In this document: piece after piece, positions 20,130 to 62,180 of the stretch
How the letters are laid out: each line of letters begins with the position of its first letter
Numbering within the stretch: the first letter of the stretch is position 1
Assembly (NCBI GenBank): GCA_963669155.1
Contig: OZ022585.1
Location: 9,675,525 to 9,739,524, forward strand
Source: Arbacia lixula
Lineage: Eukaryota; Echinodermata; Echinoidea; Arbacioida; Arbaciidae
Reading direction: 5' to 3'
DNA: 64,000 nucleotides
The notes under the pieces: generated by a model
What the model saw: only the letters and a program-made list of their open reading frames with translations
What the model was told of the DNA's origin: nothing
Databases searched by the model: none
Position numbers and translations under genes: made by a program

Positions 20130-20225
20130 TGACTGTCAATATGGGTGTACCAAAGAGACTTCTAGTGGCCGCTGTGCTGACTGCGTGGGTCATCTGCACA
20201 CAGGCTCAGCAGCTGCAGCCACTAG
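20130..20225 (+). CDS. Ig receptor exon 1: start codon and signal peptide
   Basis: A pyrimidine-rich acceptor (ccttatttgttcag) precedes 20,130, and ATG is at 20,141. The 28 codons give a basic start (MGVPKR), a hydrophobic core (LLVAAVLTAWVICT) and a likely cleavage after TQA, followed by QQLQPL. The exon ends one base into a codon at G|GTGAG, a phase-1 donor, as is typical before Ig exons. It is too short to stand out as an ORF and was found from the splice signals and signal-peptide pattern. The hAT element ends about 250 bp upstream. Confidence 0.75.
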
Positions 20226-21178: not shown

Positions 21179-21472
21179 CAATAGCATCCAGTGCTGGGGG
21201 GAACACAAGCTTGCCCTGCAGTGCAAATTACACCAATCCGTATTCACTGAGATGGTTCAGACTGAGATATATGGAAACAAATCCAACTGCAATTATAAGG
21301 AGGTCATTAAATGTCACCAGCACTGGCATGCCAGAAAAATACAAGCTGGAGGAGTCAATGACCTTGAGGATCTTAAACCTGAACGAGTCTGATGTAGGAA
21401 AGTACTACTGTAAATACACGGCCCAAAATCTAAGCATCATTACTGATGAGTCCAGCACGCTGTTTATCACAG
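21179..21472 (+). CDS. Ig receptor exon 2: V-type Ig domain
   Basis: The exon runs from acceptor cctttcag to donor ACAG|GTTAGT, 98 codons, phase 1 at both ends. It has the Ig landmarks: first cysteine in SLPCSAN, the core tryptophan in LRWFRL, a strand E-like MTLRILNLNES, then DVGKYYCKY with the second cysteine in the D-x-G-x-Y-x-C pattern, and a final strand STLFIT. N-glycosylation sequons are NTS, NYT, NVT, NES and NLS. The spacing between the cysteines suits a V or short V/I set. This is the best-supported exon of the locus. The ligand is unknown. Confidence 0.92.
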
Positions 21473-36380: not shown

Positions 36381-36746
36381 ATGTGCCAATGTCAGGCTGT
36401 GAGCCTGTGTCTGAAGAGGGAGGCTGCGACTGTGTGGTAGACGGGGATGCAGCAAAGAATGTCACCTTCACTGCTAAGGGGTTTCCTCAGAAACCTTACG
36501 TCAGCCTGACAGATAAGGAGGGGAACCCCCTGCGAGTTCATGAGGGAATTCCCCTTCATGTTCAACCCGGTTACATCACTGCCCCATCCTGGGCTTTCAA
36601 CCCATCTCATCTATTAGAGGGAAGAAATGGGACCTTGTTCCTCAGGGTTAGCAGTAACATTAACTCCCCTTCAGGTTCAACTCCGAGCTTTCTTGAGACG
36701 AAGACCGTCTGCATCTTTAGAAATGAAATACCCACCCCGGCTAACG
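36381..36746 (+). CDS. Ig receptor exon 3: second, atypical Ig-like domain
   Basis: Acceptor ttctcgccag precedes 36,381, and the exon ends AACG|GTAATT. It has 122 codons and is phase 1 at both ends, so it fits exons 2 and 4. The start is cysteine-rich (CEPVSEEGGCDC). It continues with VTFTAKGFPQKPYVSLTDKE, which resembles the B-C strands of an I- or C2-type Ig fold but with threonine where the first cysteine is expected, and ends FLETKTVCIF. Sequons are NVT, NGT and NGT across the next junction. The usual D-x-G-x-Y-x-C is missing, so the fold call is moderate. It could be a non-Ig ectodomain. Confidence 0.85.
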
Positions 36747-40941: not shown

Positions 40942-41040
40942 GGACCAGCTCGAATGAAAAACTTTGTGCTTTGCTGGTAATCCCAATCCCAGCAGTGTTG
41001 TTGGGGGTCCTATGGTGCATGCGGAAAAAACAAGAGTCTG
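40942..41040 (+). CDS. Ig receptor exon 4: transmembrane segment
   Basis: Acceptor tatacccacag precedes 40,942 and donor TCTG|GTGAGA follows 41,040. It has 33 codons, phase 1 to phase 1. It encodes a short stalk (GTSSNEKL), a hydrophobic helix (CALLVIPIPAVLLGVLWC) and a basic stop-transfer sequence (MRKKQES). This places the preceding Ig exons outside the cell and the following exons in the cytoplasm. Confidence 0.85.
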
Positions 41041-42116: not shown

Positions 42117-42220
42117 CTGGTAAAGCTTGTGTCTGTCTAAGCCAAGTCATCCCATCATGCTGTAACCGGAAGGCTTTCAGGGATAGCCTAGCTCCATCAG
42201 ACGCTACTCTGGATGGAGCG
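42117..42220 (+). CDS. Ig receptor exon 5: juxtamembrane tail (tentative start)
   Basis: The exon ends at GATGGAGCG|GTAGGT in phase 0, the phase needed by the next exon, and must start in phase 1 to follow exon 4. In-frame acceptors that satisfy this lie at 42,117, 42,126 and 42,147. I chose the first, but polypyrimidine support is weak for all. The peptide includes KACVCLSQVIPSCCNRKAF and then DSLAPSDATLDGA, cysteine-rich near the membrane, so palmitoylation is possible. Main support is that it restores the frame across the phase change. It could also be absent if exon 4 splices elsewhere. Confidence 0.45.
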
Positions 42221-42508: not shown

Positions 42509-42628
42509 GCACAGGCACCAACCGGGACTGACAGAGAAGAAGTAAAGAAATTTGAAACAGCCAGCATTGAAGTTTATAACAATAGTGACCAGTTAAACGT
42601 GACTTCTAAAGAAATCAATGTTGGAACA
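42509..42628 (+). CDS. Ig receptor exon 6: tail with YNN motif
   Basis: After tttttcttcataaaag the exon starts GCA CAG GCA and runs 40 codons to ACA|GTGAGT, phase 0 both sides. A second acceptor 6 bp downstream keeps the frame. The peptide is acidic and polar, with KFETASIEVYNNSDQL. Y-N-N fits the pYxN consensus bound by Grb2-type SH2 domains, so a phosphotyrosine signalling role is possible but inferred only. No stop occurs in this frame, whereas the other frame that follows exon 4 directly hits TGA, supporting exon 5. Confidence 0.7.
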
Positions 42629-42734: not shown

Positions 42735-45479
42735 GACAATAATTTATTTATTTATTTATTTATTTATTTTATTTCACGTTTTATTTAGACAGGGTAGTCC
42801 TTTCAGTCTCGAGGACTGCTTTCCAAAGGAGCCCTGTGATACAAATCACGTAAACATAACAAAATATGTAACATTCAAATACAATTAATACAAAGATCAA
42901 AGATAACAATAACAAAGACTAACACAAAAACACATTTGAAGAAGGGAAAAAAAAGTCACACAAATGTAAGTGAGTGAGTGACCCCCCCCCCCCCCCCCTC
43001 CCCCGGCCTAACGCAGTGCCCAGGTGTAGCTTATACGACGCACATCTGATTTAAATTTTGTGAGACTATTACAACAGTGAACAGTGATTGGGAGGCTGTT
43101 AAAGAGTTTACTACCACAATAGCAGATTGATCTTTTCATGTATTCAGTTCTAGGTGTGGGAACAAATAACGGGCTGCGGGTTGCGTAACGGGTTGTATAG
43201 TTAACATCTCTGCGTTGTATTAAGGTATTTAAGTAACGGGGAGCTTGCCCATGGAGGATTTTGAATACAAGTACCGTTTGTTGATACCGGGTTCTTTGCT
43301 TAACTGACTGCCAATTTAAAGTGCTTAATAGAAAACTTGCCGATGTGAATAAATCCATGCCAAGAACCATTCGAGCGTATTTGTTTTGCAATCGTTGGAT
43401 ACGTGAAATATTTGCTTGGGCACAGCTCCCCCATACTGTACAAGAAAAATCAATGTGTGGTAAAACAAGAGAATAAAACAGATCTATCATTATTTCTTTT
43501 GTAAGGTAACACTTTACTCTACGTATGCAGCCAATTGCTTGTGATATCTTTTTTACAACATGATCAACATGACTAGTCCAATTAAGACTCCCGTCCAACA
43601 CAACACCAAGATATTTAAATTCTTTGACATGTTCAAGGATATCATTTTTGTACATTATTGCCAATTTTTTACCTGTTAATTTACGGTTTGAACCAAACAG
43701 CATAGTTTTCGTCTTTTCCGAGTTTAAAAATAGGTCATTACATTGAAGCCATTTAGTGATGGTACCAAATTGTGACTGGAGTTTCAGTTGTACATCATGA
43801 ATATTCTTATCTGTACAAAATATAGCTGTGTCATCTGTGTATAAAGATAATTTACAGGATTCATCTAATATTAAATTAGATATGTCATTAATAAATATAC
43901 TGAACATGAGGGGTCCTAGAGTCGAACCTTGGGGAACACCAGATTTTACCTTTAAGTACTTGCTTAATGTTCCTTCTATTGAAACACAATGCAATCGATC
44001 AGTAATATACGATTTAAACCATTCTAATTCTAAATTACGTATTCCATACATCGATAGTTTTTTTAAAAGACGCGTATGAGAAATTACATCGAATGCTTTT
44101 CGCAAGTCAAGAAAAATTGCACCTGTGATATTACCAGAATTCATATTACGCAGAATATATTCTGAAATATCAGTAACACATGTTTGAGTTGAATGCATCG
44201 GTCTAAAACCTGATTGTATAGAAGATAACAAAGAATTTTCATCAAAGTATTTATAAAGTTGTGCATGAACAGCCCTTTCCAATATTTTTGCAGGTATGGG
44301 CAGTAAAGAGATTGGACGATAGTTGTTAATATCTAATTTATTTCCACCTTTGTAAAGTGGTATTATTTTTGCAATTTTAAAGTCAGTTGGGATCTCCGCA
44401 GTACGTAATGATACATTATAAAGAAAACTTAATGGCCTTGCAATGTAATCAGCAGCAAGTTTCAATAGTTTTGGGTGTAATTTATCAATTCCAACAGCTT
44501 TATTACAGTTAACTGACTTCAGTTCTTTAAGTACAAATTCTATTGTTATATCATCAAAGGAGAAACTTTCAGTGTTTTCAACTATCGTTGAACAAATATC
44601 AGTGCATGTATGATCGAGGTTTTTCATTGTATCTAAAATATTATTAAAATTCTTATTAAATGCATTAGCGATCTCTTGTCTGTCTGATACTAGATCATCA
44701 TGAAATTTAAGTTGATATTGAGTTGAAGTTCTTTTCTTACTTGGGAGTAACGTGTTCATTACTTTCCACTTGTTTTTTATATCACGACCAGCCTCTGACA
44801 ACTTATTACGATAATATCTTTTCTGTAATACTTTATTGAAATTATTAACTTTATTTCGACAGTTTTGGTATAGTTTCCAATCTTCAGGATCTTTTCTATC
44901 ATCATATCTCTTTTTCAAATAATCACGCTCTCTAGCAAGTTCCAAATATTCGTCAGTGATCCAGGGCACCTGTTTCATCTTTTTTCTAACTGTACAATAT
45001 GGTGCATGTTTATTACAAATAACCTCAAATGCCTGTTTAAATTCAATCCAAATTTCGTTCACATTTGTCTTTTCATATACACTACTCCAATCATAATTTC
45101 TAAGATCATGACAAAACTTTTCTACATCAAAATTACGAAATGATCTGAACTTGGATACTTTGGGATAACCTTTAGGCAAAGTTTCTTTCAATACAACATA
45201 AGTTAACAGATGGTCACTAATAGACGCAGATTGTATACCTGACGTTAATGAACCAAATGAATTAGACACCAAAATCAGGTCAATAAGAGTTTGGCTATGT
45301 GGAGTAACACGAGTAGGTTTCTTTATAATTTGAGATAGAGCAAACTCATTACATAAGCAACGAATCTTTTTGGAAAAATTACTCTCTTTTAACATATTAA
45401 CATTAAAATCACCCATAATAATAACACGGTCAGAATTAAGACATATTTGACAAAGTTCATGCAAAGATATGGCTGGCAA
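42735..45479 (-). mobile_element. CR1-like LINE, 5' truncated, ORF intact
   Basis: A minus-strand LINE occupying intron 6. Its 3' end (42,735-43,007) has a (TAAA)n tail at 42,740-42,770, then a hairpin-like segment with CAGGGCTCCTTTGG and CTGAAAGGACTACCCTGT, shared with the LINE at 7,380-8,775. The body is one uninterrupted ORF. The 5' end at about 45,480 cuts within the endonuclease domain. Confidence 0.88.
43008..45479 (-). CDS. LINE ORF2 protein: partial APE endonuclease plus reverse transcriptase
   Basis: 823 codons. The N-terminus lacks the first part of the apurinic-type endonuclease but keeps IIMGDFNVNM (residues 20-29) and SASISDHLL (about 85-92), two catalytic blocks of that fold. 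The reverse transcriptase has NNYRPISLLP (about 386-395), FLDLRKAFDVISH (456-468), SGVPQGSTLGP (513-523) and the catalytic LYTDD (546-550), where alanine is more usual than threonine. KEFKYLGVVLDGSLNW and a C-terminal CYCGSKLFNSLP complete it. Over 2.4 kb without a stop implies a recent insertion or recent activity of this family. It copies its RNA at a nicked target. With its 5' end missing it is unlikely to move on its own. Confidence 0.92.
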   Translation of the reverse strand: MPAISLHELCQICLNSDRVIIMGDFNVNMLKESNFSKKIRCLCNEFALSQIIKKPTRVTPHSQTLIDLILVSNSFGSLTSGIQSASISDHLLTYVVLKETLPKGYPKVSKFRSFRNFDVEKFCHDLRNYDWSSVYEKTNVNEIWIEFKQAFEVICNKHAPYCTVRKKMKQVPWITDEYLELARERDYLKKRYDDRKDPEDWKLYQNCRNKVNNFNKVLQKRYYRNKLSEAGRDIKNKWKVMNTLLPSKKRTSTQYQLKFHDDLVSDRQEIANAFNKNFNNILDTMKNLDHTCTDICSTIVENTESFSFDDITIEFVLKELKSVNCNKAVGIDKLHPKLLKLAADYIARPLSFLYNVSLRTAEIPTDFKIAKIIPLYKGGNKLDINNYRPISLLPIPAKILERAVHAQLYKYFDENSLLSSIQSGFRPMHSTQTCVTDISEYILRNMNSGNITGAIFLDLRKAFDVISHTRLLKKLSMYGIRNLELEWFKSYITDRLHCVSIEGTLSKYLKVKSGVPQGSTLGPLMFSIFINDISNLILDESCKLSLYTDDTAIFCTDKNIHDVQLKLQSQFGTITKWLQCNDLFLNSEKTKTMLFGSNRKLTGKKLAIMYKNDILEHVKEFKYLGVVLDGSLNWTSHVDHVVKKISQAIGCIRRVKCYLTKEIMIDLFYSLVLPHIDFSCTVWGSCAQANISRIQRLQNKYARMVLGMDLFTSASFLLSTLNWQSVKQRTRYQQTVLVFKILHGQAPRYLNTLIQRRDVNYTTRYATRSPLFVPTPRTEYMKRSICYCGSKLFNSLPITVHCCNSLTKFKSDVRRISYTWALR

Positions 45480-45480
45480 A

Positions 45481-45740
45481 TTCTCGGTGACACTGTCTAT
45501 TCATTGCAGATCAGAGGCAACGCTCAAGAAAGCTCATATCACACCTACAACATACTAAATGGGCGAGAGAAAAAAATTGGGAAAGAAAAACTGAAGGAGG
45601 ACAAAGCGAGGAATAGAAAAAACGAAGGTGGCAGAAATTGCATTGCAAAAGGAATGAAAGAATGGCCCTATCAACACCAGGATTCGAACTGGGGTCGCGT
45701 GTTCTTACAAACCAGCCTTAACCAGTTCAGCCACAAAACC
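45481..45740 (-). mobile_element. tRNA-derived SINE-like sequence
   Basis: Minus strand 45,740-45,672 resembles a tRNA-Thr(TGT): GTGGCTGAACTGGTTAAGGC (A-box region), GTTTGTAAGAAC (anticodon loop with TGT) and CAGTTCGAATCCTGG (B-box/T-arm). The acceptor stem does not pair, so it is a tRNA-derived head rather than a gene. About 190 bp of unrelated body follow to the LINE edge. It sits at the border of the duplicated block, which in the other copy (about 56,785) lacks it. Confidence 0.6.
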
Positions 45741-46040
45741 CTATTCACTTAACAAGTAAAACCTAATAGGTTATAGAATGATTTAGAAATCAATATTCAA
45801 GCTGAAATGTTGCCATGATCCCGACATCTGATTAAAAACGGAGACCTTAAATACAAAAGCTAGTAGACTCAGCTACAACATTTCAGAGTAAAAGGCCCAA
45901 GAATGAGCGAGATACAGCTTATCTAACATTGTCATGTCATTTCATGATAAGAAAAAAATGCCCTTCCCTTTGACATAACATGTACATACGTGTGATTTTT
46001 GGCATGAACTCTTCATGTGTTTCGCTCGGATTTTTGCACA
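45735..46040. repeat. Duplicated block, copy 1, upstream part
   Basis: Matches 56,785-57,070 at roughly 85-88 percent by eye, including gagtaaaaggcccaa, cttatctaacattgtcatgt and tttttgcacaa. Copy 1 then carries about 1.4 kb absent from copy 2. Confidence 0.85.
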
Positions 46041-47470
46041 ACCGCGTATTTCCCTATGGACGTCCCTTGTCCCATTGTTTTGCGAACAATTGCATGCAGC
46101 GGAGCGTGCCTACATCGTATATTTACAATTAAAAAAATCAATACATCCTCCAGCAGACCCAAGAAGTTCATTGAAAAAAGGAGAGGAGAAATTCAATAAA
46201 ACCCTCCTCAAAAACAATACCACGGTCAGGTTCACTGTTAGGACTCAATGTGAATGAGACCCTTTCATTGGAGAACCTTGACCAGGCTAAAAAAAATGCA
46301 GCATACAGGGGGTTAACGGGTGAACGTACGACGAGTTAATGCCCACAATAAAAGGTTTAGACCATGATGATGTCATGAAAATAAAAAATGAACGCTTCTA
46401 TAGAACAATGTCTCAGCTACAATATATTGTATAGGCATTGTGTTCTTAGTTTGTCCGTCAGTCCGCCCCGAATCCGTTCAGACAATATCTTGAGAACCGC
46501 TAACCTGATTTGCTGCAAACTTGGTACAAGTGTGCATTGCATTAAACCAATGAAATGTGTAAAATAGGGGTTAATGAACTTTGTGAAAAAATGCCACAAA
46601 TTGCCCCTTTTCACATTAAATCCAAATCCAATGATGCAATTCCAACCAAACATAATTAAAAGATGGATCACTACTAGGGGGTAGACTGGTGACATTTTTG
46701 GTGAAACTTTTGGAAGGTCAATGAACTTTGCAAAACTTGGCTGAAAATTGCCCCCAAATTGATATTTTTCACAATAAACACAAATCCAATGGTACAACCG
46801 CCATGAAAAAAACATGGTGCAGAGATGTATCACTTCATGGAGATAGACTGGTGAATTTTGGGTAAAATTCCTGAAAGGGGAAAGGTCAATGAAATTTGCC
46901 AATAATTAGCTAAAAATTGCCACCAAAGGGATATTTTCAAAACAAATCCAAAAACATGGGGCAAAGATGGATCCCTTTTGATATAGGTAGACTGACGACA
47001 TTTTTGTTGAAATTTCTCAAGGTCTGAGGTTAAAGGTCAATGAACTTTGCCAAAATTGGCTAAAGCTTTCCCCCAAATTGATATTTTTCATATTGAATCC
47101 AAATGTAATGGTTAAATTCAAAACAAACATGATACAGAGATGTATCACTTCATGGAGGTAGACTGGTGAAAGTTTTGGTAAAATTCCTGAAACTTCCTGA
47201 ACTTTACCCAAAATTGGCCAATTTTGAACAAACTTCATACAAGGCTTGATTTAAACTGTGGTTAGATAGGAAGTCAAAGAAGTAAGAGGTCAAAGGTCAA
47301 TGAACATTGCCAAACTTGGCTAATAATGGAAAAACAGAACCTGATATTTTCATTTCACATAGGAATTCAATGGAACATTACCCACCAAACGTTTTCTGAT
47401 AATAAATTTAAATAGAGCTAGCAAAGAGGCGGAGGCATGTTTTTCGCCTGCGCGGCAGTCGAATTGCTCT
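46041..47470. repeat. Insertion with tandem units containing AGGTCA direct repeats
   Basis: After about 350 bp of unrecognised sequence there are five to six degenerate units (46,450-47,400). Each has a ggtcaatgaactttgccaaa-like block, attgatatttttcacat-like and tggaggtagactggtga-like blocks. The last reads aggtcaaaggtcaatgaa. Absent from duplicate copy 2, so it arrived after the duplication. ORFs in it are compositional. Confidence 0.8.
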
Positions 47471-47822
47471 AGTTTACAATATTTGTTTTTACAAAACGTA
47501 TAGATGCACGCACAGACTTTCAACTTTGAAGCACCCGCATAACCTTGTTATTGCATGAACACAGCTCAAAATGACATGATCTGATGTAAGTAGTGTCAAA
47601 ACCATGAATTCAGTAAAAAAAAATGAAATTCTGACATTGTGTTTGCGTTACGCATGTACAAATGTGCGTACGCACTCGTGTACATGTGCAGAATTTTTTG
47701 AAATGCTTTAAATGGCCTGAAACATAATGTAAAACAATTTTCCTGTGCAGCCTACCTCCCCTTCTCCATTGCTGTAGTATGATGTAGTGAAATAAACTAT
47801 TGATCTTTTTTTGTTTGTTCAG
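47471..47822. repeat. Duplicated block, copy 1, intron before exon 7
   Basis: Matches 57,125-57,367, including gtagtgtcaaaac, catgaattcagt and gtgaaataaact just before the acceptor. Confidence 0.85.
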
Positions 47823-48029
47823 ATCTTTCATGATCCAGAGCGAAGAGTAACTCTCGGTGGGACAATCCTGCTGGACAACATACGCTCAGCTTCAAGAGAA
47901 ATGAAAGACAACACGAACACACTTGTGTGTCATGTACTTAAGCAGGGACGTGAAGAATTGTCAAATCAGGAGTCACCTTCCACAGCTAGTGGGAAGTTTA
48001 TTGGCGAAACTTCCTTTCCAAGAAGCAAG
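47823..48029 (+). CDS. Ig receptor exon 7: tail module, copy 1
   Basis: Acceptor ttttgtttgttcag precedes 47,823, and donor AGCAAG|GTACAT follows 48,029. It has 69 codons, phase 0 both sides. The peptide starts IFHDPERRVTLGGTILLDNI, continues through a charged middle with KQGREELSNQES, and ends SGKFIGETSFPRSK. It is the same length as exon 8, with identical conserved ends (GTILL, SAS, LSNQE, FIGETSF). I know no domain of this pattern. A gap-free in-frame pair of copies with conserved splice sites argues that it is translated. Confidence 0.88.
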
Positions 48030-48876
48030 GTACATGTACTTCTTACTAAGTAACATCTATGGTCATTAGGTCATTATTCTTTATAATGTGAATGTTGGTT
48101 TTAGGTTTTCAGCTCTTCATTTCGGATAGGATGTTTAATAACAGAGGTCCTGTGTATAGAAGAGTCACACTCTATGCATGTTAAAGACCCCATTTCACTT
48201 CTCCATTAAGAGCAGGGTGAAAACCCGATGGAGTGGACAGAAAGCCTGTACTGAAAAATAGGTGAGAAATGCCGACCCCTCCTGGTTTAACCCAGAAATC
48301 TATTTGGCCTTCAAATGGTATCAAATAAGCATTACAATTACCATACAACATAATATTATAACAATACTCGCTTTTGGCACAGTGTGGGTGGGGGCTGTTG
48401 GCTTTCTGTCTCTTCCCAGTCTTCCAAATTATTATATTGTGAATCTTTTATATACCAGACAAATACCGTTTTAAGGAACGGTGCAAAAATGAGGATTTTA
48501 CCATATTTCATTATTATTAGCCCCAAAAGGAGGATTCTTCGAATAGAACAAACAATCTGATAATGTTTGTTGTCAGAGTTGTTGAAAAGCTCAACTCTAC
48601 GTTAATGTACTTCATAACAAATTCCTGGTCAAACTGTTGGTAGCACCATGTAGTTTCATTATTTGATCTGGATCTGAACGTATTTGTACAAATGAATTAT
48701 GTATAAGTGCAAGAATTCTCAACTTTGACATGACAACAGGTGTTCCAGAAAATGTAGGCGTAAAGAAAGAAGTCATTCATGTTAAGACCGTGGGCGTAGC
48801 TGTCAATTAGAATTATAATACAAGCTTTCAAAGATAGAGAGAGATAGGGGTGGGGGTGGGGGGGGGGGGTGGGAGA

Positions 48877-48926
<50 letters not shown>

Positions 48927-50615
48927 GACTGAAACTGTAAGACGCCAGCGTAGATCTATGTTTAGATATTTCGGTCATTGACCTTTATCATGAATGAACA
49001 ATTTACATGTAAACACATTTGCATACTGCTCCGATGACGAGAAAAATTAAATTTCGTTGAGATCTTGCTCTCTTGGAATGTGTCATCATTTGTTTTCTAA
49101 TTTACTCATTTCAACAACATACTCTTACATATCTTATATAGTCACGTTCATTTCTTTATCCTGGGTCTCTGATGATATTTAGATGCAAAGCAATTAATTA
49201 ATTTGTAACATTGTGAGCAATAAAGTCACATCCTTTTGAATATACATGTATAGATAATAAGATATAAGATTTAAGTAGACTGTCAATACTAATTTTCTTT
49301 TCAATTATAAATTGGTTTCTTACATAATTTCAGAGAGATTAAAAGAAAGACACCTCTTGATTTAAAGGGCATGGATATAGTGAGGGTAGGATAAAAACAA
49401 GGGAAAAAAACTTGGTCGCCAAAACCTTATGTGTATAATTGTGACCTAGCTAGCAGCCCAAAATGAGACATGTGTCGCGATTGATCATGTTTGGGTTATG
49501 TATACCACCTTATTTTTCGTGCCCTAAGCTTTAATTTGATACTGCAATCATAGATTTTGGTGGCTTGGGCGCCGAGATGCAAGTACTTTGATGTAGAAAA
49601 TATAAACGGCAGTGAAAAAGAGAATCGGAGAAATTTGCTTTTAAGGAATACGATACGGTTTGGTTTCAAACTCATGTTGTCCCTCTGTCAATCGTGCGAA
49701 CATCAGCTAGATTCAGCGTTTCCAAGTGCGTAAAAACAGTTGAGAAATTACAATAATTCGTATACAGTACTAGAACCGACACCGATCGATATCCGCTTTT
49801 CGTGAATTTGCACGGCTATTGATAGACACCCAGACCTGGTCGTCGGGGGAGATATTTTGAATGAGAGACCGAACATAGTACATGAGTTTGTTTCTGCTAA
49901 ATTTTGTTTAATTGCAAGATATGAATCTTCAATATTTCTTTTAACAAATGTGAGTTTTAGCTCTTGATATAAAGTATAAATCCGTCCATTCTTGTAATAG
50001 AAATGATAGGAAGAAAAGAAATCTTCGGGCACTCGTCAAGCTGACGAGGTCAGCGTATTGCAAACGTTCAGCCGACAATAGGTGCAGTCATGTGATCGGT
50101 CGCTCTGGACAGCTCCGGCAGCAAGGCTAATGCATAATGCATGATTTGCAAAGACATGGCCTAGACAATAGATTTAGTCAAGTGTCGTTATATTCTTTCA
50201 CTACGAACATTTTAGTAGGTACAAACAAGCATGGATTGAGTTCATGCTTGCTCTGTGTTCAGCTTGCTATACTGCAAGTTCAACGTTTAAAGCGATTTAA
50301 GAAAACTGCCGATTTTTTTGAAGCTATTTGAATAAACTACCGGTTAATTATAAATATTGATAGAGCCCGCCCAATATTTAAGAAGCTATCAATGAACTCA
50401 ACGTAATATCATGTAAAGAAATCGGCGGTTTACCATGTTTACCGTAACTGTTAGCTAAGCCTGCTTAATAAGCTGCCGATTTATCATGACTATTGATAAT
50501 TTCCGACCCGCCCAGCCTTGACGGGAACTCCCGGTTAATCGTAACTATTGATAGAGCTCACCCCATATCATTTAAAGAAACTATTAACTCATCGTAACTT
50601 CATGCAAAGAGACCG
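48030..50615 (+). other. Intron 7, first part: AT repeat, no gene
   Basis: Holds poly-G (about 48,846-48,870) and (AT)n (48,891-48,923), flanked by sequence also found near copy 2 (atttcggtcattgaccttta against ttttcggtcatagaccttta at 57,990). ORFs are isolated and unrecognised. Confidence 0.6.
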
Positions 50616-50619
50616 TAAC

Positions 50620-52165
50620 TATTAGTAACTAGTAGAGTCTACTGGTCTGAAGAAGAACTGCAAAATCAAACCAGTAGAAACCAATAGAAAAAAAGTAGAG
50701 TCTAATGTTATTGAAGACCAGCAGAAACCAGTAAGATCTAATGGTTTGAAAATGATTGTGAAAAATTCAAAGTGAAACCAGTAGAGACCATTATTAGAGA
50801 CCAGTGAATTCCACGGGTATTGGAGACCAGTAGAAACCAAAAGAAACCAGTGAGATCTAATGGTTTGAAAAGGAGTGTGAAAAATACAAAGTCACACCAG
50901 TAGAAACCATTAGAGACCAGTGAATTTTTCTGGTATTGGAGACTAGAATAAACCAATAGAGACCAGTGCGATCTAATGGTTTGAAAAGGAGTGTGAAGAA
51001 AACAAAATCAAACCAGTAGAAACCAATAGAAACAAGTGATATCTAATATTTTGAAAAGGAGTGTGAAATATACAAAGTCAAACCAGTAGAAGCCAATAGA
51101 AACCAGTGAAATCTAATGTTTTGAAAAGGAGTGTGAAAATTCAAAGTCAAACCAGTAGAAACAATTAGGGACCAGTGAATTGTACTGGCATTGGAGACCA
51201 GTAGAAACCAATAGAAATAGAGATGCTCCTGAATATTCATGCATGTATTAGGCCTATTCACGTGTCATAATTTTGAATTTTCAAAAACTGGCAGATAACC
51301 AGATAAAAGTAATTTTACCAATAAATGATTTAAACATGAATGAATTTAAACATAAAATAGTGAATGTCACCTACTTAAGTGAAGACAATAATGATAACAA
51401 TTACTGTACGAAAATTACTCTTCTTATGTAAGTTGTACTAACCAGTATCTTATGAACCTTATAACCGTAGTACTATACAAAGTGTGTGAAGGAAAGAGCA
51501 GGAATTAGAATAGGAATAAGATAGGATAGAAATAAATTAGGATAGGAATAGGATAGGATAGGAATAAGTAAAGGATAGGATAAGGTTAGAACATTTAGAA
51601 AATATGCCATAAATCGGATTATCCTAAAATAAAATTTAATCAATATTAGATCAATATTTTTAACGTTGGACCAATGTCACATTTTGATTCCTACTAGTCT
51701 TCTAATGGTTCCAGTAGCTTTTCTGCTGGTTTCTACTGGTCTTCTAGTGGTCTTTTATTTGATCCAGTAGATATTCCTATTGGTTTCTACTGATATTCTA
51801 CTGATATATTTCTAATGGTTTCTACTGGAAATCATTTCACTTTCCATATTCAAACCAGTAGAAAACTTCCAGTAGAAACCAGTAGGAATCTTTCTTGAGC
51901 CAGTAAAGGTTCCTATGGTCTTCTATTGGATCCAGTAGAAATTCGTTCTGGTTTCTACTGGTATTCTACTGGTCTTCTATTGGTGTTCTATTGGATCCAG
52001 TAGAGATTCCTACTGGCTTCTATTGATATTTTACTGGTATTTTTCTCATGGTTTCTAGTGGAAATCACTTTACTTTCCATATTCAAACCAGTAGGAAATT
52101 GCCAGTAGAAACAAGTACAAATTCTAATGGTTATTTCTTACTGGTTTCTACTGTTTTTTGTCCTG
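50620..52165. repeat. Inverted minisatellite of ACCAGTAGAAACCA motif
   Basis: Left half (50,620-51,225) has many ACCAGTAGAAACCAATAGA units with a longer period of about 110-120 bp (ggtttgaaaaggagtgtgaa). Right half (51,690-52,165) has the complement, GGTTTCTACTGGT. The 450 bp between are unrelated, including tandem aggataggaata (51,510-51,580). The halves form a large imperfect hairpin. Confidence 0.88.
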
Positions 52166-52169
52166 GGTG

Positions 52170-53900
52170 TTCACGGTGATGATCATAGCGATCATTACGA
52201 TGGTCACTGGTGATGATGATGATCATTATCATAGGCACTGCGCGCGGCGTTGGCTTGGATCGATGATCAGTGATCGAATGTTATAATATCGGTCAATTGG
52301 TAGCGGCACAAACTTTTGAGAATTATGAGTCTTTTCAAAGAGCTGATAAACGAGCAGGATGCAAGATCATCTCCATTCCGGCGTGGATTTCTTAAAAAAA
52401 GAACGAGCAATAATCGCGCACAGTCGATTAGCAGGCAGTTACAAATAAAAGTGGGCGGATTAGAAGGCGGCTTGAGTGATGTGTAATGTGGGGACGCGGG
52501 GCGCTGCATGCAGGTATTCAGCGGCATTCAGCGGATATTCATGACAATGATGATGATGGTGATTATGATGCTCATCACTATAGTTACGACCATGGAGATC
52601 GATTATTACGATGATCAGGGTGATAATTACGATGATCACGGTGATGATGATGATGATGATGATACTAATTATAATAGATAGTGGGCGGATTTGAATACCC
52701 ATGAGAGACGTGGGAGGTGATTTGCTTATGGTACCGATCACTTGCATTTTATCTACAGCAATAATGATGATCATGATATTTTGCCCTCGACGTTTTAACC
52801 GTAAGTAGCGAAAAATAAATCTGTGTTGAGCTCTGACCAGTGCGTAGTAGAAAGAGCTACAGATCTAAGTGGTTCCTGGTTATTCGTTCATTAACCGAAC
52901 GCGACCCACACAATCATAAAGCAATGCATGCAATGCATCTACTCCGCACCACCGCGCCGATCTCATTACAAATCGGTGCCCGACAAACATGTGCATCAGT
53001 CGTACAAACCGCGAAAAATAAGCCAATGAACGGCGAGCGGTAACTAAGGGGACTTCAGAAAAACGATACAATTTCATATTTAGATCTATTCCTTTGGTCT
53101 GAAATTTTGACACATGATAGAAAAAACAATAGAAAATCTCATAGGACAAATACAAAATTTAGGTCGCATGTCTGAACCCCCCCCCCCCCCCACAGTTTAC
53201 AGAATTATATTGTAATAGTCGTGTTCATACGGCCATTTCGAACTTAAATTGCGGTCGTGGTCTCGTGGATAGATTTAACTTCGGGTTCGTTCAGCAGAGC
53301 ACTGCGATAAAACTAACTTAGCGCCGCTCGAAGTTAAAGGCTGTAAGTACAGACTGCAGTAGATACCACGCACACGCACAGGCTGTCGAGTGGATCATGC
53401 AGGGACATCCGTGCGGCCCTTTGCAGCGCAGTCACATTTTCGGATAGTACAGAGCAACTAAAAAGGCATTGATGCGGGGTGTAGCCGTGCATCGCCTCGA
53501 ATTTTATAGTTTATTAGAAACGCTGCGCTCCTATACCCTGTAACTCATTTAATATCACGTGCGCATCATTATGTGATAACCATATTGCCTTTTCATTGAT
53601 GGGTTAGGACGGGTAATCATGAAAGTTTGCGACTCTTCAAAGCGCGCAGAATAGAGTTTGTTTGCGCCATACACACTCTAGGAGGAGGGGTCATGCACCC
53701 CCCCCCCCCCTCCTCTTTCACCGCATGAAACGCGGTACGTTGCTTTGTTGGAATTTCTGAGCTGTTGTTGATTTCACTGCGCGTTGTCTAATGGCATCGC
53801 CTAGCTTGATCGATTGAAATTGAGCAAGGAGCTAAAAATATTCCAACTGCCTTCAAAGCTACATGCAACTGCAAGAGACAACTTAACTTGTAGTACACGC
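52170..53900. other. Intronic stretch with GAT trinucleotide repeats, no gene
   Basis: Clusters of gatgatgat/gatcat (52,180-52,230 and 52,540-52,780), poly-C runs (53,178-53,192 and 53,697-53,710), and otherwise unrecognised sequence. Short ORFs show no family motif. Confidence 0.6.
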
Positions 53901-53919
53901 AAGTAAAATATGGTTAGAT

Positions 53920-55060
53920 GAAAAGAAATAATGGTACATGGATCTATGTTGATGTTTCTCATTAATGATGTCTCTATAGTTATTGATATTATTTTCACAT
54001 GATTATATAATCTTCATAACATAGACTTCTCTCACAGATAACTTTTTCCATTTAAAGACATTATCACATGGACTCTCGATATTTGGGTCTCTCGATCTCA
54101 GAAAAATCAAGATGATTCTGTCATTATGAACATTACTTTCATTTAATTTTCACCTAATCATGATAATGCGCCTCCCGATCACTGAAAAAGCATTTATATA
54201 TACATATAAATATTTCTGGCGTTCTATACGCAATAAAAAAAAACGCGCTCCCTGATCATTAACATCCAATATTGCATGTTTTTGCTGACCTATCAAAACT
54301 ATTTTTGTACAACTAAATACTTGATAATAAGTCTCCGCTCTCAGAGAAATGTATGGATGACAATGCTACCGTTATGGATGTTACTTGCATCTTCATAATG
54401 CGTCTCCTGAGATAATTATACATGTTTATACTATTAATGCGCATTATTTTCGTGTTACAAGTTTTAGAATTACGTCTCCCGATCATTAAGAATATATGAA
54501 TGATGCTTAATCTGCCCTCTGGTTGGCCGGGCATAACAACGACTAATATCATGAAAATGCATCTCCTGAATATAGAAAAAATACATGTTTCTCCAGTTAT
54601 CGACAATATTTTCATTTGATTTGGATCTTGATAAATGGGGTCTTTCGATCTCAAAACATAGTAGGGATGATGATTCTGCATTTGTGGACAATATGTTCGT
54701 ATCATGATATCGTTCAAGAATCATGATAATGTGTCTCCCGATTGTTTAAAATATACTTGCTTCCATGCTGTTCGGGACATTATTTTGCATTCCTATTATG
54801 CTTTTAAAATCTTGATAACGGACCCCGGATTATTAAAACAGAAATACATGGATGAGAGTTCTGCAATTATTGGCCTTTTTTTCATGTGATTAGATTCTTG
54901 ATAAATCATTTCTGCCGTTACGGACAATGTTTTCATTGGATTAGAATCTTGATAGTGGGTCTCCCGATCTCAGAAATATATGAATGATTCTGCTGTTCCG
55001 TCGATTTTAATTCCATTAAATAATCATTACAATACTCAATCACGATCATAAATATTACAG
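53920..55060. repeat. Degenerate tandem repeat, unit roughly 130-150 bp
   Basis: Seven or so diverged units share attcttgataatg-like, gtctcccgatc, aaatatatgaatgat and ttatggacaatattttcat-like blocks. Frames are broken and it is not coding. Confidence 0.7.
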
Positions 55061-55496
55061 GAGTAAAAATTTCATGGCATTCCCTTGAAGCGGTCAACTG
55101 CACAACTGTGTATCAGTTCATCGGAAAATGAGAAAAGGGTTTCTTTTTTAAAACAAAAACGCCGCCATCCGGTCGGAAAGTTGACTTGTGATCGAACAAT
55201 AGAGTGCACTTCCGTGGTTAAGTTGCTCGTCGGGACGATGTGCGACGTCTTTGCGCATAACAAAGAGATAGGAAAATCAGTCAATCGGCAGCGCTCGCTC
55301 GTTCTATAGAAATCGTGAGGGTTTTATTTTTCGTCTCGCGAAATCTCACGCGATTTTGCTGCACCTAGATTATGGAATTCGACTTGCTCGCGAGATCTTT
55401 TGCTGGTGTCTTCTGTAAGCATACTGATCAGGAATTTTGTAGACAGGGATTGAGCTTACATGTTTCTTAATAAATATATTTTTTTTTTCGAAATGT

Positions 55497-56135
55497 GCCA
55501 AGTAATAACATTCAATTAAAACAGGCAGAAAAATATTGCAACTTCGAGATAAATATGTTGTTCTATTTAAATAAAGAAAAGTGAAAATAAACATATTTCA
55601 ATGTCAATCGCTTTTGAGCCCCCATCACTTATAGATCATCTGAAGCGGAATCGATTGTACTTTGTGAACATACCATTTTTTTTCAACCTCTCCTTGTAAA
55701 AGGGTCAGGGTTCAGCAAAATATCCACCAGGTTCAAATCCAAACTGCGTGAGACATGACGACGAAGTTGTGAGCTATCCTAACCAGCCAATAATAGTCCG
55801 CGACCCTTGAATCGCCGGTGGCATTTCGTTATTATCGTGGACTATGATTGGCTGGTTAGGATCGTTCACAACTTCGTCATGTCTCACGCATTTTGGATTT
55901 GAACATGGTTGATATTTTGCTGAATCCTGACCCTTCTACATGGAGAGATTGAAAATACTGGTATTTTCAGAAAGTACAATATATTCCGCTTCAGATGATC
56001 TATAAGTGTTTGCGGCTCAAAAGCGATTGACATTGAAACATAGAGTCTATTTTCATTTGTCTTTTTTGAATTAGAATCACATATTTATCTCGAATTTGCA
56101 ATATTTTTCGGCCTGTTTTAATTAAATAAATCCGG
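55497..56135. mobile_element. Palindromic element, arms about 300 bp
   Basis: Left arm landmarks (caatgtcaatcgcttttgag, tatagatcatctgaagcgga, gtgagacatgacgacgaagt, tcctaaccagccaat) recur reversed and complemented in the right arm, leaving a loop of about 40 bp at 55,805-55,845. The arms extend out to attaaaacaggc / gcctgttttaat. No coding capacity. Confidence 0.85.
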
Positions 56136-56784
56136 ACCTCCAACATACAGTTGCAAGTGAAAGCGTGCGAACATATGGTTTATTCATGGAGATATCGCAG
56201 TGTGAAAAGGAGACCTTTTTCGCGGTTCGAGAGTCCAAGTGAAGGTCACGACTACCGAGCTGAAAATAAAAGAAGCGTATTTTCTTGGGCCTGTCAACTG
56301 GCTGTAATTTAGTCGGGACGAAGAGCAACGATCAGTAAAAGGGTTTTTGTTCAACCGTCGCTCATCGTCGGTACCCGCATGAACAGGGAAGTTTATCCAT
56401 ATGCATAGAAGCCAATTCATCTGCAAGACACGCATTTTCATATATAAATCCATAGGCCATCGTCGCTACGAAGAGGTCTTGCTAACGAATTTATCCGTGG
56501 TGCCTAAGTTCTAGGCTGTGTGTTTCTTATTTCTTCTGCGCACAATCAGAGCTTAGTTTTTGACATCACACAAAGGTTATCCTTTTTTCGTTTCCTTTAC
56601 CATCTGATGAAAAAAGGAAGAAGGAAAGGGTATGTACTCTTTATTTACAGACTTGGTCGTAATTGCAGCAGTACGTATAAGAATAGTTCACCCTGAAATT
56701 ACGTTGGGTTTACTAGAAGCAGAAACATGAAAGGATCATAAATTAGTGTAGTTTTGATGAAAATCCCTTCAAGTAATCCATCCA
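56136..56784. other. Intronic gap between palindrome and duplicated block
   Basis: No gene, repeat or structure recognised. Short ORFs only. Confidence 0.5.
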
Positions 56785-57367
56785 AAAAAATTCCCATTCA
56801 CTGGACAAGTAATGTATAATAGGGGAAAGAACGATTCAAGCTGAGATTTCGCCATGAGCCCGACATCTTATTCACGAAAGCTAGTAGATTCAGCTAACAT
56901 ACGAAAATTGTAGAGTAAAAGGCCCAAACATGACCGAGATACGGCTTATCTAACATTGTCATGTCAGTTCATGATTAGAAATAAACGCCCCTTCATTTGA
57001 CATAACCCGAACATACGTATGTTTTTGACATTAACTTTTTATGTGTTTCTTTCGCATTTTTGCACAATCACTGACACACTTTCAGAATATTGAAAACAAA
57101 TTTCGAGTCACGGATAGTAATGTTTTTTACAATATGTTTTTTTTTTATTATTATTTTTTTTTTTTTACAAAACTCAAAGATCCTGCACCACCTTCTAAAT
57201 GCATGAACGCAGAATGACAAGATCTGATGTATGTAGTGTCAAAACAATGAATTCAGTGACAAAAATGGAATTCCTACCTCTTTTTACTTCCTCCCAGTGA
57301 AAGGACTGAGTATCACGTCGTGAAATAAACTACAGTGTATTGATCTTTTCTCCCCGTCTTTGTTCAG
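56785..57367. repeat. Duplicated block, copy 2, intron before exon 8
   Basis: Counterpart of 45,735-46,040 plus 47,471-47,822, joined by about 90 bp where copy 1 carries the 1.4-kb insertion. Contains a T-rich run (57,138-57,165). Confidence 0.85.
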
Positions 57368-57574
57368 GCCTTTGATGATCAAGAGCGAGGACTACCTCTC
57401 GCTGGGACAATCCTGCTTGCAGACATAGTCTCAGCTTCAGACGAAAGGAAAAGAAAGATCAAAGCATGTGTGGTTAGTTTAGTTAAACAGGAACTGGCAC
57501 AATTGTCCAATCAGGAGTTACATTCCACATCTAGTGGGAGTTTTATTGGCGAAACTTCCTTTACAGCAAGCAAG
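57368..57574 (+). CDS. Ig receptor exon 8: tail module, copy 2
   Basis: Acceptor gtctttgttcag precedes 57,368, and donor AGCAAG|GTATGT follows 57,574. It has 69 codons, phase 0. The peptide starts AFDDQERGLPLAGTILLADI and ends SGSFIGETSFTASK. By hand alignment with exon 7, 37 of 69 residues and 159 of 207 bases are identical, with no gaps. Of the differing codons only three are synonymous. It probably follows exon 7 in the transcript, though the two could also be alternatives, since both are phase 0. Confidence 0.87.
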
Positions 57575-57601
57575 GTATGTCTTACTAAGCATATAAACTT
57601 A

Positions 57602-58799: not shown

Positions 58800-59029
58800 T
58801 TAAGCTTAGATTGTACGTAAGTCAACACTAATTTCTAATAGACCTTTTTATGTATGCAAATTTTAATCACGCCGTTCAAAAAATACGTTATTATAGGCCA
58901 TGGGCCAGAAACCGAAAAGGTCCCCCCCCCTTAGCCACAATTTCAAACCATGTTTTTATGTTAGGTAGGACCCTCAGCTGTCAGAATCTGCCTGTTTGCC
59001 ATTGCGCTGGTGGTGGGTGTGGCCTCCAG

Positions 59030-61240
59030 GGCTGTTGCCATGGTAACATGTCAGTGAAATTTTGGAATTTGAGGAAGTTACAAAATTGCCATATATTTCT
59101 TAAATAGTAACATAAAAAGACAAAATTTGTGTCTAAGTATACATTTCAGAAGTTGCCCAGTTGATTCTGATAGGAATCTAAGGCAATTAAGGCCATTTTC
59201 ATGCGTAAAAAATGGTTATTGCCATGGAAACGATCCGAAAAAATGTATTTTTTTAGATAGCAATTCAAATATATGTTAATAGGCAACTCAAAGTCAAATC
59301 GCCGCTTCAAAAAGTGTGAATATTAAGATATCAGACTCATATCGATGAAGAATGAGGTATTTTTAAGTGCGAACAGTCATGCATAAGAGCACCGTTGCTA
59401 TGACAACACCACGGTGCACGAAATACTAAAATTACAGAAAAATAAGAAATTGCCATCTATTTATCATATGGCGACCTAAAAACACAAAATTAGTGTTCAA
59501 GTATACATTTATGAAGGTGCCCAGTTGATTTAGATTGGAATTTAAGTCATAACAGATCACAATAATGCCGAAAAATAGTAGTTGCCATGGAAACGATATG
59601 AACCAAGAAGGTAATTTTGTTTTAAAACCATTCAAATATATGTAAATACGCAGCAAAAAACCTAATCCAAGTTTATAGTTTTATGAATATTTAGTTGCCA
59701 GAATAGTAGCAATGAAGATTGAGTCATTTCTAAGTGATAACTGTCACCCATAAGATGACTGTTGCTATGACAACACCATGGTACCAAAAATATTGAACTT
59801 ACAGAAGTATAAGAAAGTGCCATTAATTTCTCAAATGTTGACATAAAAACACAATATTAACGTCTAAGTATACATTTATCAAGGCGCCCTGTTGATTCTG
59901 ATCAGAATCTAAGTCATGTAAGGTCATTATCATGCGTAAAATAGTCGTTACCATGGAAACGACATGTTAAAAGGGTATTTTTGTTAGAAAAGTATTGAAA
60001 TATCTGTAAATTTACAGCACAAAACCTAATTCTTCGTTAAGGTTTGGTGAATATTTACATGCCAGAATAGTTGCAAAAAAGCTTAAGTCATTTATTTGCA
60101 GTAACTGTCATGCAAAAAAATATCATTGCTATGACAACACCATGATGTCAAAAATACTGAAATTACTGAATTAGAAGAAAGTGTCATATGTTTCTCATAT
60201 GGTAACTTAAAAACAGAAAATACGTTTCTAGGTATACATTTACCATAGTCCACAGTTGGTTGGTTATGATTGTAATCTAATTCATTAGAGATCACAATTG
60301 TGCCTAAAATGGTTGTTGCCATAGAAACGCTGTGAAAAGAAAAAGCAATTTTGTAAGAAAAACATTCAAATATATGTAGGCCATGGGCCGCAAACCGAAA
60401 ACGTCTCCCCCCCCCCCTTAGCCACAATTTAAAACCATGTTTTTATGTTAGGCAGGACCCTAAGCTGTCAGAATCTGCCTGTTTGCCATTGCGCTGGTGG
60501 TGGGTGTGGCCTCCTGGGCTGTTGCCATGGTAACGTGTCAGTGAAATTTTGGAATTTGAGGAAGTTACAAAACTGCCATATATTTCTGAAATAGTAACAT
60601 AAAAAAAACAAAATTTGTGTCTAAGTATACATTCCACAAGTTGCCCAGTTCCTTCTGATAGGAATCTAAGCGAATTAATGACATGCGTAAAAATGGGTAT
60701 TGCCATGGAAACGATCAGAAAAGGGCATTTTTAGTTAACAATTCAAATATATGTTAGTAGGCAACTCAAAGCCAAATCCCTGCTTTTAAAAATGTAAGTT
60801 TTAAGATATCAGACTCATGATCAATGAAGACTGATGTATTTTTAAGTGCGAACAGCCATGCATAAGAGCACCGTTGCTATGACAACAACATGGTGCCAGA
60901 AGTAGTAAAATTACAGAACTATATGAAATTGCCATATATTTTTCATATGGTGACCTAAAAGCACAAAATCAGTGTTCGAGTATACATTTATTAAAGTGCC
61001 CAGTTGATAAAGATTGGAATTTAAGTTTTAACAGATCAGGATGATGCCTAAAAATGGTAGTTGCCATGGAAACATAATGAACCAAAAAGGTAATTTTGTT
61101 AGAAAATCATTCAAATATATATAAATACATCGCCTTAAACCTAATCCTAGTTTATAGTGTTATGAATATTTACATGCCAGAATGGCAGTAATCATGATTA
61201 TTGTCATACCTCGAATGACTGTTGCTATGACAACACCATG
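59030..61240. repeat. Tandem units of about 366 bp with RFX X-box-like palindromes
   Basis: GTTGCCATGGAAAC-like and GTTGCTATGACAAC-like 14-mers alternate every 180 bp or so (59,033; 59,219; 59,395; 59,581; 59,762; 59,947; 60,128; 60,315; 60,519; 60,700; 60,870; 61,058; 61,221). Many fit the X-box consensus RYYNYYATRRNRAC bound by RFX factors. The right arm repeats the pattern in reverse (62,383-63,473). The palindromic centre is the best conserved part of each unit. Confidence 0.8.
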
Positions 61241-61489
61241 GCGGCAAAAATAAAATTGATATCCTAAGCACGTACAAAGCGATACCAAGGTGATGTGAGG
61301 CACTTTCATCTCTTGTGCTTTCTTATCGCCTTGGTGAATGTATCTCGTTATTTGTGTGATTTCTTTTCAACTGATTTTGTAGGTGTTAGGCCATTGTCAT
61401 GGTATCTCACCATGGTACATGTATGTTGCATGCTCAGGATGAGGATGTCCAGCATACTAAGATACATGTACATGTTTTACAATGTGCAG

Positions 61490-61531
61490 GAAGAGTCTGT
61501 GGATGGTGACAGTGACGGAGGCGATAATTAA
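61490..61531 (+). CDS. Ig receptor exon 9: proposed last coding exon
   Basis: Acceptor catgttttacaatgtgcag precedes 61,490. The phase-0 frame reads EESVDGDSDGGDN and then TAA, a short acidic tail of 13 residues. It follows exon 8 in frame. The acceptor is moderate, and no AATAAA lies in the next 600 bp, so the true 3' end may be elsewhere or beyond the window. It sits in the non-repeated loop of the 58,800-63,812 element. Confidence 0.45.
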   Translation, partial: EESVDGDSDGGDN

Positions 61532-62180
61532 AATTGAATTGTATGGTATTATGTTTTCACTTTACTATTGAGTTTATAAAACTACATATGTATATGTATA
61601 TATAACATAAAAGTAGCGTAATACATCATATTATGGTATAATACATTCAATATTTTGCACCAGTGTATTGACATTGTACCTGGCAATTATGCATGACCTC
61701 GACAACCTTGAATTTCCGGATCTTATGTACAATCAGAAGCACAGTTACAAAAGTCATATACATGTACCTTGTTACTTTTGATACAAAAGTCATATACATG
61801 TATCTTGTTACTTTTGATACGTTTTGTGGTGTTTCCCAGGTTGAATTCTCTTATAATTTGTATTTTTGTTATGTACTTGCTAAAGCAACAATATTTGACA
61901 ACAAATCTTGAAGGCATTCGTCTGGAAAGCTTGAAATTCATAGCTCTATACACTTTCATTGTGTCTTTTGGTGCTAAAAGGGTGAGATGTATATATTTAA
62001 GTGATACATTGCGTATGCTAACAACCAAGTAGTTCACATTGATTACAAAATAGGCATGACCATAAACACCTAAGAATTCTTCAATAATATTGATTCATAT
62101 CATTTGAAAATATAAGCCATCATAATACTGCAAACTGGGATTAAGTTTTGTGCTACCCTTTTGCACTAAAAATCACAATT
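61532..62180. other. Loop of the inverted-repeat element
   Basis: AT-rich. Contains a tandem duplication of about 31 bp (acaaaagtcatatacatgta twice, 61,747-61,820). No gene besides the proposed exon 9. Confidence 0.6.

What the first reader, a model, noticed from the sequence alone, without database searches (positions are those of the whole stretch)
47823..57574. Duplicated cytoplasmic-tail exon diverging mainly by amino-acid changes
Exons 7 and 8 are the same length and phase with identical ends, inside a duplicated block. By hand: 159/207 bases identical, 37/69 residues identical, about 32 replaced codons but only 3 synonymous-only differences. Neighbouring intron from the same duplication is about 87 percent identical over a 96-bp stretch. 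An exon changing faster than its intron, and almost only by replacement, is a signature of diversifying selection. It is unusual for the intracellular part of a receptor.
Basis: partly seen in the sequence, partly recalled or inferred. Interest (0 to 1): 0.85.

Follow-up and report, generated by a model that had tools for sequence, protein, structure and literature searches.

The report
Fast-changing tail of duplicated Ig receptor
In this animal genome the inner, signalling half of a small immunoglobulin-type receptor has been changing its amino acids faster than neighbouring non-coding DNA changes, while the outer half has not, which is the reverse of what is usually seen in such receptors.

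Summary
Exons at 47823-48029 (e7) and 57368-57574 (e8) are both 207 nt, phase 0; 158/207 bases and 37/69 residues agree; 32 codons are replaced, 3 differ only synonymously. Pairwise omega is 3.7-4.1, p 0.004-0.011. Introns of the same block differ by 14.7% (59/402); the exon's synonymous sites match them (11%), its nonsynonymous sites do not (27.5%), so conversion of introns alone does not explain this pair. Stricter counts are weaker (p 0.04-0.08).

Outside the window lies an inverted paralogue (gene 2) with one copy of the exon. With it as third sequence, the excess falls on e7 (omega 8.8, p 0.004; intron-anchored 3.8, p 2e-5); e8 and the gene 2 copy do not exceed 1 significantly. Between the genes, signal and Ig exons differ less than introns, while transmembrane, exon 5, T1, e7 and e11 exceed nearly all intron windows. 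For transmembrane/T1, old unconverted divergence or misalignment remains possible.

Best reading: positive selection on the cytoplasmic tail, with e7 released by exon duplication. Function, splicing and species are untested.

The parts
20130..20225 (+). Exon 1: signal-peptide exon (MGVPKRLLVAAVLTAWVICTQAQQLQPL), ends phase 1
   Evidence: Splice scan; counterpart in gene 2, 25/28 aa
21179..21472 (+). Exon 2: V-type Ig domain (Ig1), phase 1-1
   Evidence: Pfam V-set E 5.5e-08; splice scan; gene 2 counterpart 79/95 aligned codons with the same aa
36381..36746 (+). Exon 3: second extracellular domain (Ig2), Ig-like by eye, no Pfam match, phase 1-1
   Evidence: gene 2 counterpart 95/121 aa; two places found in the 607 Mb genome at E<=10
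40942..41040 (+). Exon 4: transmembrane exon (LCALLVIPIPAVLLGVLWCMRKK), phase 1-1
   Evidence: Splice scan; gene 2 counterpart of 108 nt, strongly diverged
42201..42220 (+). Exon 5: 20-nt micro-exon, phase 1 to 0, joins TM to T1
   Evidence: Phase-consistent candidate; same length and site in gene 2
42515..42628 (+). Exon 6: tail exon T1, phase 0-0
   Evidence: gene 2 counterpart of 138 nt, 17/38 aligned codons with the same aa
45795..48050 (+). Duplicated block, copy A (intron plus e7)
   Evidence: Self-comparison
46556..47218 (.). Tandem-repeat array in copy A, not in copy B; an array of the same repeat, reversed relative to the gene, lies in the matching intron of gene 2
   Evidence: Repeat families D11 and D14; no match in copy B; matches in gene 2 intron
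47823..48029 (+). Exon 7 (e7): accelerated copy, phase 0-0, 69 codons
   Evidence: AlphaFold model predicts helix 11-49
56834..57589 (+). Duplicated block, copy B (intron plus e8)
57368..57574 (+). Exon 8 (e8): copy closer to the single exon of gene 2, phase 0-0, 69 codons
   Evidence: AlphaFold model predicts helix 12-52

Best explanation
The two exons are tail segments of a type I Ig receptor gene (signal, two Ig-like domains, TM, phase-0 tail exons). An inverted copy of the gene (gene 2) faces it tail-to-tail. After an internal duplication, e8 stayed close to the single exon kept by gene 2, while e7 was free to change and was driven by positive selection, mostly on the predicted central helix (codons about 25-46). 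Other tail exons (e11, more weakly e9, and probably TM, exon 5 and T1) also changed faster than neutral between the two genes, while the Ig ectodomains did not. Inferred, not shown: the ectodomains kept a shared ligand and selection acted on which intracellular or membrane partners each receptor engages, so the two genes, and possibly e7 and e8 isoforms, send different signals. Shown here: the gene pair, the exon copies, the rates. Not shown: expression, splicing, binding, signalling.
For: Pairwise omega 3.7-4.1; nonsynonymous sites exceed the introns of the same block (Fisher p 0.0006) and synonymous sites do not differ from them. Third copy in inverted gene 2: introns near-equidistant (AB .154, AC .139, BC .168 of 273 columns) but exon-unique changes e7 27, e8 15, gene 2 6 of 195; only e7 is above its intron, p 0.005. 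Branch omega e7 8.8 p 0.004, anchored 3.8 p 2e-5; e8 2.4 and 1.3, gene 2 copy 0.48 and 0.48, none significant. Between genes: extracellular 244 codons omega 0.81, dN 0.091; TM to e11 300 codons omega 2.09 p 0.0012, anchored 2.16 p 6e-14. Same-length intron windows as diverged as the exon: T1 0 of 5599, e7 0 of 4597, e11 10 of 5404, TM 54 of 5911, exon 5 55 of 6821. e7+e9+e10+e11 together: S like intron p 0.37, N above intron p 2e-5, N vs S p 0.006. No gap or stop in e7/e8; a compensated frameshift is not favoured.
Against: One genome, no orthologues, no transcripts. The pair was chosen because it looked odd, so p values are not corrected. With adjacent changes merged, N vs S p 0.042 and N vs intron events p 0.084. 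e10 (2461 of 4489 windows) and e9 (532 of 5101) are not outliers in the window test, and e10's anchored omega is 1.17, p 0.51. For TM+exon 5+T1, synonymous sites are also raised (p 0.029) and N vs S is not different (p 0.30). Without anchoring, one omega for all three branches is not rejected (p 0.07). Codons 25-46 were delimited after seeing the data; no third of the exon reaches p 0.05 without anchoring.
Confidence: 0.57

Rival explanations
1. Gene conversion between the inverted genes (or between block copies) homogenised introns and Ig exons, and left the transmembrane and tail exons with old divergence; the exon excess is then age, not a faster rate.
For: TM+exon 5+T1 have raised synonymous divergence (12/51.7 against 12.0% in introns, p 0.029). 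Background divergence drops to 4.9% in the 3' part (68565-71877). Signs of patchiness in introns are borderline: dispersion over 64 windows of 100 columns p 0.058, longest identical run P 0.05. Conversion in introns and leader but not in Ig-domain exons is reported for CEACAM32 (PMC7042247, passages).
Against: Synonymous divergence does not differ from introns for e7/e8 (p 0.52) nor for e7+e9+e10+e11 between the genes (p 0.37). Intron divergence does not differ between 13 segments from 19.9 to 68.6 kb (p 0.16).
Confidence: 0.2
2. Relaxed constraint plus chance, helped by multi-nucleotide mutations and by selection of a striking example, gives an apparent omega above 1.
For: 49 differences fall in 33 runs (random 37.7, P 0.058); event-collapsed tests weaken to p 0.042 and 0.084; neutral simulation P about 0.045.
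Against: Nonsynonymous change exceeds introns, which relaxation alone cannot give; same direction on the e7 branch with a third copy and in other tail exons of the gene pair; frame kept.
Confidence: 0.2
3. e7 and e8 are alternatives (one per transcript), and the divergence is isoform specialisation of the kind seen in mutually exclusive exons, rather than conflict with a fast-changing partner.
For: Same length and phase, both with splice sites; e8 is nearer to the gene 2 exon and e7 changed more.
Against: The later tail exons e9-e11 are also phase 0, so phase symmetry does not point to exclusivity; no transcripts are held; other single tail exons change fast as well.
Confidence: 0.3

Closest known systems
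Paired Ig receptors of vertebrates (families such as KIR, SIRP, CEACAM; PMC5112662, abstract and passages)
   Same: Two Ig receptors in one locus with similar ectodomains and divergent transmembrane and tail exons.
   Different: Opposite signalling is not shown. Only a degenerate SSYDEV motif in gene 1 with the Tyr lost in gene 2; no charged residue inside either TM segment by eye. Here the tail, not the ectodomain, shows the selection signal.
Dscam tandem duplicated exons (PMC3236188, abstract and passages)
   Same: Duplicated exons of an Ig receptor diverging after duplication.
   Different: Those exons code for parts of Ig domains; [quoted passage not shown] Here the exons are in the tail and selection is indicated.
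Accelerated exons in primate segmental duplications (PMC3906575, passages)
   Same: Same logic: exon differences above those of adjacent introns in duplicated DNA.
   Different: A survey of human coding exons; not a contrast of receptor parts.
Avian Trojan receptor family (PMC4372362, abstract and passages)
   Same: Duplicated transmembrane proteins with contrasting selection on outside and inside.
   Different: Opposite polarity: positive selection outside, almost none inside; CCP and FN3 domains, not Ig.
Botryllus fester co-receptors (PMC12065747, passages)
   Same: Invertebrate Ig receptors whose tails carry tyrosine motifs, with changes of signal motif between alleles.
   Different: Allorecognition locus with an added sushi domain; no homology tested here.

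Membership tests
Paired Ig receptors | Members clustered in one locus | tested here: met
   Gene 1 and inverted gene 2 on contig C10, about 76 kb between their Ig2 exons
Paired Ig receptors | Highly similar ectodomains | tested here: met
   Ig1 79/95, Ig2 95/121 aligned residues; omega of signal+Ig1+Ig2 0.81
Paired Ig receptors | Opposed signalling motifs (ITIM against ITAM or charged TM) | tested here: inconclusive
   SSYDEV only in gene 1; YRRL in both; no charged TM residue seen by eye. The ITIM pattern and the charged-TM rule are recalled
Paired Ig receptors | Shared ligand and opposite function | not testable with these tools
   Needs binding and signalling assays
Mutually exclusive tandem exons | Homologous neighbouring exons, same phase | tested here: met
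Mutually exclusive tandem exons | Only one exon per transcript | not testable with these tools
   No transcripts held
Genes under positive selection | dN/dS above 1 with correction | tested here: met
   weaker with adjacent changes merged
Genes under positive selection | Repeated across orthologues or against polymorphism | not testable with these tools
   No other species or population data held

The most novel reading that the evidence does not exclude
A receptor pair with reversed selection: the ectodomain is held while the membrane-spanning and intracellular parts are in an arms race or in rapid re-wiring, with one tandem tail exon (e8) preserving the old partner interface and the other (e7) exploring new ones. 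The cytoplasmic tail itself would be the contested or recognised surface.
Probability: 0.22. Interest if true: 0.82.

Novelty: new variant of a known kind. Interest (0 to 1): 0.62.

Why it matters
Immune-type receptors are expected to vary outside and keep their signalling tails. A natural gene pair in which tail exons change faster than introns, and in which one of two tandem tail exons carries most of the change, gives a way to study how receptor output, rather than ligand binding, evolves. It would also be a clean case of exon duplication releasing one copy to change.

Tried and rejected
Compensated frameshift as the cause of clustered replacements: the ungapped alignment is best under all 9 parameter sets tried. 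Third copy in the window: none above noise. Viral contigs: 37 stretches matched a pattern, none encodes a relative. Solved structures: designed helical knot protein E 2e-5 with e8 alone, E 0.54 with the e7+e8 profile, so taken as helix composition. Pfam: no gathering-level family for either tail; e7+e8 gave one match at E 5.9 and the joined tails none at E<=5. Common origin of e7/e8 with e9, e10, e11: no profile match (e9 vs e10). The intron parts of the first three-way alignment were misaligned and replaced by narrower hand-chosen stretches; only the exon part is used. The codon ML had not converged and was replaced. The first intron-window test lost the segments with Ig1 and TM and was replaced. 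A first splice scan with strict thresholds missed most exons. Searches of the genome with T1, Ig1 and e10 did not complete, so the size of the wider Ig family is unknown. Not tested: the species. I saw no case like this in the listings; nothing else in print was searched.
Full report
WHAT IS THERE. The two exons are at 47823-48029 (e7) and 57368-57574 (e8). Both have 207 nt, are open in phase 0 only and have AG and GT at their ends. They share 158/207 bases and 37/69 residues; 34 codons are identical, 3 differ synonymously only and 32 are replaced; differences by codon position are 19, 19, 11. Each finds only the other in the window above noise. They lie in a duplicated block, 45795-48050 and 56834-57589, in the same order, with a tandem-repeat array in the first copy that the second lacks. 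An array of the same repeat, reversed relative to the gene, lies in the matching intron of gene 2, so whether it was gained by copy A or lost from copy B is open.

THE GENE. A phase-consistent model is: signal exon 20130-20225, V-type Ig exon 21179-21472 (Pfam V-set E 5.5e-08), second Ig-like exon 36381-36746 (no Pfam match), transmembrane exon 40942-41040, a 20-nt micro-exon 42201-42220, tail exon T1 42515-42628, then e7 and e8. Splice sites come from a simple matrix that I wrote from general knowledge. The micro-exon rests on the same 20-nt exon at the matching place in gene 2. Beyond the window, by comparison with gene 2, come tail exons e9 (extended coordinates 66294-66452), e10 (67640-67855), e11 (68051-68194) and a last exon e12 with stop (69869-69985), all entered in phase 0. 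That e7 and e8 are intracellular follows from their place after the transmembrane exon and is inference.

PAIRWISE TEST. NG86: S 48.5, N 158.5, 5.33 and 43.67 differences, dS 0.119, dN 0.343, ratio 2.89, Fisher p 0.012. Codon ML under four frequency models, kappa free or fixed: omega 3.7-4.1, p 0.0038-0.0105; on the F3x4 profile the grid values 1.5 to 12 lie within 2 log units of the best, 1.2 and 20 do not. Aligned introns of the block: 59 of 402 differ. Nonsynonymous sites exceed introns (p 0.0006; p 0.003 against the far segment only), and synonymous sites do not differ from introns (p 0.52). Intron-anchored omega is 2.3, p 1.4e-4; by parts, codons 25-46 give 4.57, p 1.4e-6, codons 1-24 1.90, p 0.068, codons 47-69 1.09, p 0.83; without anchoring the parts give p 0.08, 0.07 and 0.36. 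These limits were drawn after seeing the data. Results that weaken the case: a neutral simulation with 49 differences and no stop gives 3 or fewer synonymous-only codons in 4.3-4.7%; adjacent differences counted once give 30 nonsynonymous and 3 synonymous events, p 0.042, and 30 events against introns p 0.084. A shifted reading frame restored later is not favoured.

A THIRD COPY. The genome that holds the window (607 Mb, 590 contigs, species not named) answered three of my searches. e8 at E<=0.001 finds three places and e7 at E<=10 finds the same three: e7, e8 and one on the minus strand, C10:9781057-9781254. The Ig2 exon at E<=10 finds two places. The tool scores only its best candidates. Searches with Ig1, T1 and e10 did not complete. 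I fetched 100 kb to the right. The third copy belongs to an inverted gene 2 with counterparts of signal, Ig1, Ig2, TM, micro-exon, T1, one exon of the e7/e8 kind (66 codons) and e9-e12. No second copy of that exon was seen in the fetched 100 kb, of which 5 kb read N.

WHICH COPY CHANGED. On 273 shared intron columns the three are nearly equidistant (0.154, 0.139, 0.168), with 16, 24 and 20 changes unique to e7's block, e8's block and gene 2. In 195 exon columns the unique changes are 27, 15 and 6. Only e7 exceeds its introns (p 0.005; e8 p 0.74; gene 2 copy p 0.064, in the low direction). By codons, unique changes synonymous/replaced are e7 1/14, e8 1/7, gene 2 2/2; 11 codons in which all three differ were left out of that count but kept in the likelihood. 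On a star tree, branch omega: e7 8.8 (p 0.004), e8 2.4 (p 0.20), gene 2 0.48 (p 0.38); intron-anchored 3.8 (p 2e-5), 1.3 (p 0.39), 0.48 (p 0.17). A single omega for all branches is rejected with anchoring (p 0.0015) but not without (p 0.07). So e8 and gene 2 look like the older form and e7 moved. Two-sequence AlphaFold models predict one long helix in both (12-52 in e8, 11-49 in e7; mean pLDDT 73 and 76, pTM 0.42 and 0.43), so the replaced stretch sits on a helix that is predicted to be kept.

GENE 1 AGAINST GENE 2. Over 13 colinear segments from 19.9 to 68.6 kb introns differ at 849 of 7068 columns, 12.0%, without significant difference between segments (p 0.16). Exon differences: signal 8/96, Ig1 25/288, Ig2 36/366, TM 21/90, exon 5 7/20, T1 32/114, e7 37/195, e9 25/153, e10 24/204, e11 27/129, e12 2/117. 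Intron windows of the same length at least as diverged: 88%, 88% and 78% for signal, Ig1, Ig2; then TM 54 of 5911, exon 5 55 of 6821, T1 0 of 5599, e7 0 of 4597, e9 532 of 5101, e10 2461 of 4489, e11 10 of 5404, e12 5560 of 5560. The windows overlap, so these are not independent counts. e12 lies in a stretch (68565-71877) whose own background is 4.9%, so its low value is not clear evidence of constraint. Codon tests: extracellular 244 codons omega 0.81 (p 0.45); TM to e11 300 codons 2.09 (p 0.0012), anchored 2.16 (p 6e-14); exon 5 to e12 296 codons 2.10 (p 0.0024); single exons reach p 0.05 without anchoring only for e7 (omega 4.04, p 0.016). The anchoring used an earlier intron count of 662/5726 in which one short overlap was counted twice. 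Alignment of TM, T1 and e11 needs in-frame gaps and is uncertain.

WHERE THE RIVAL HOLDS. For TM, exon 5 and T1 together, synonymous sites are also raised over introns (p 0.029) and N does not differ from S (p 0.30). There, older divergence left behind by conversion, or misalignment, can explain the excess. For e7, e9, e10 and e11 together, synonymous sites match introns (p 0.37), N exceeds introns (p 2e-5) and N exceeds S (p 0.006). Signs of patchiness in the introns are borderline (dispersion p 0.058, longest identical run P 0.05). A case in which conversion affected introns and leader but spared the Ig-domain exons is reported for CEACAM32 (PMC7042247, passages).

READING. [quoted passage not shown] I do not file the pair there: opposed signalling was not tested, the transmembrane segments show no charged residue by eye, and the only motif difference is SSYDEV in e10 of gene 1 with the tyrosine lost in gene 2, which lies outside the window and may be chance. 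The avian Trojan family shows the reverse polarity (PMC4372362, abstract and passages); that this is the usual one is general knowledge. Dscam paralogous exons gave no evidence of positive selection, with low power (PMC3236188, abstract and passages).

VERDICT. What the tail binds, and whether e7 and e8 are used together, are open.

Noticed in passing
window 11014-17815: A very long in-frame tandem array (open frame of 2258 codons on the minus strand, unit reading TSKPATQPHTSK-like) beside what looks by eye like a transposase-type reading frame; no CG dinucleotide in 12001-16000.
   Followed up: no
window 43008-45500 (-): Open 830-codon reading frame that looks by eye like the reverse transcriptase of a non-LTR element, in the intron before e7.
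   Followed up: no
window 55510-56127: Palindromic element (84.5% identity to its own reverse complement over 627 columns) in the e7-e8 intron.
   Followed up: no
window 58922-63585: Large inverted array of about 366-bp repeats right after e8.
   Followed up: no
C10:9796707-9796802 (minus; L009): A partial second copy of the Ig1 exon in gene 2 (last 32 residues, 78% identical to Ig1 of gene 1).
   Followed up: no
gene 2 last exon, matching extended window coordinates 69869-69985: Gene 2's last exon ends 13 residues earlier than gene 1's.
   Followed up: no
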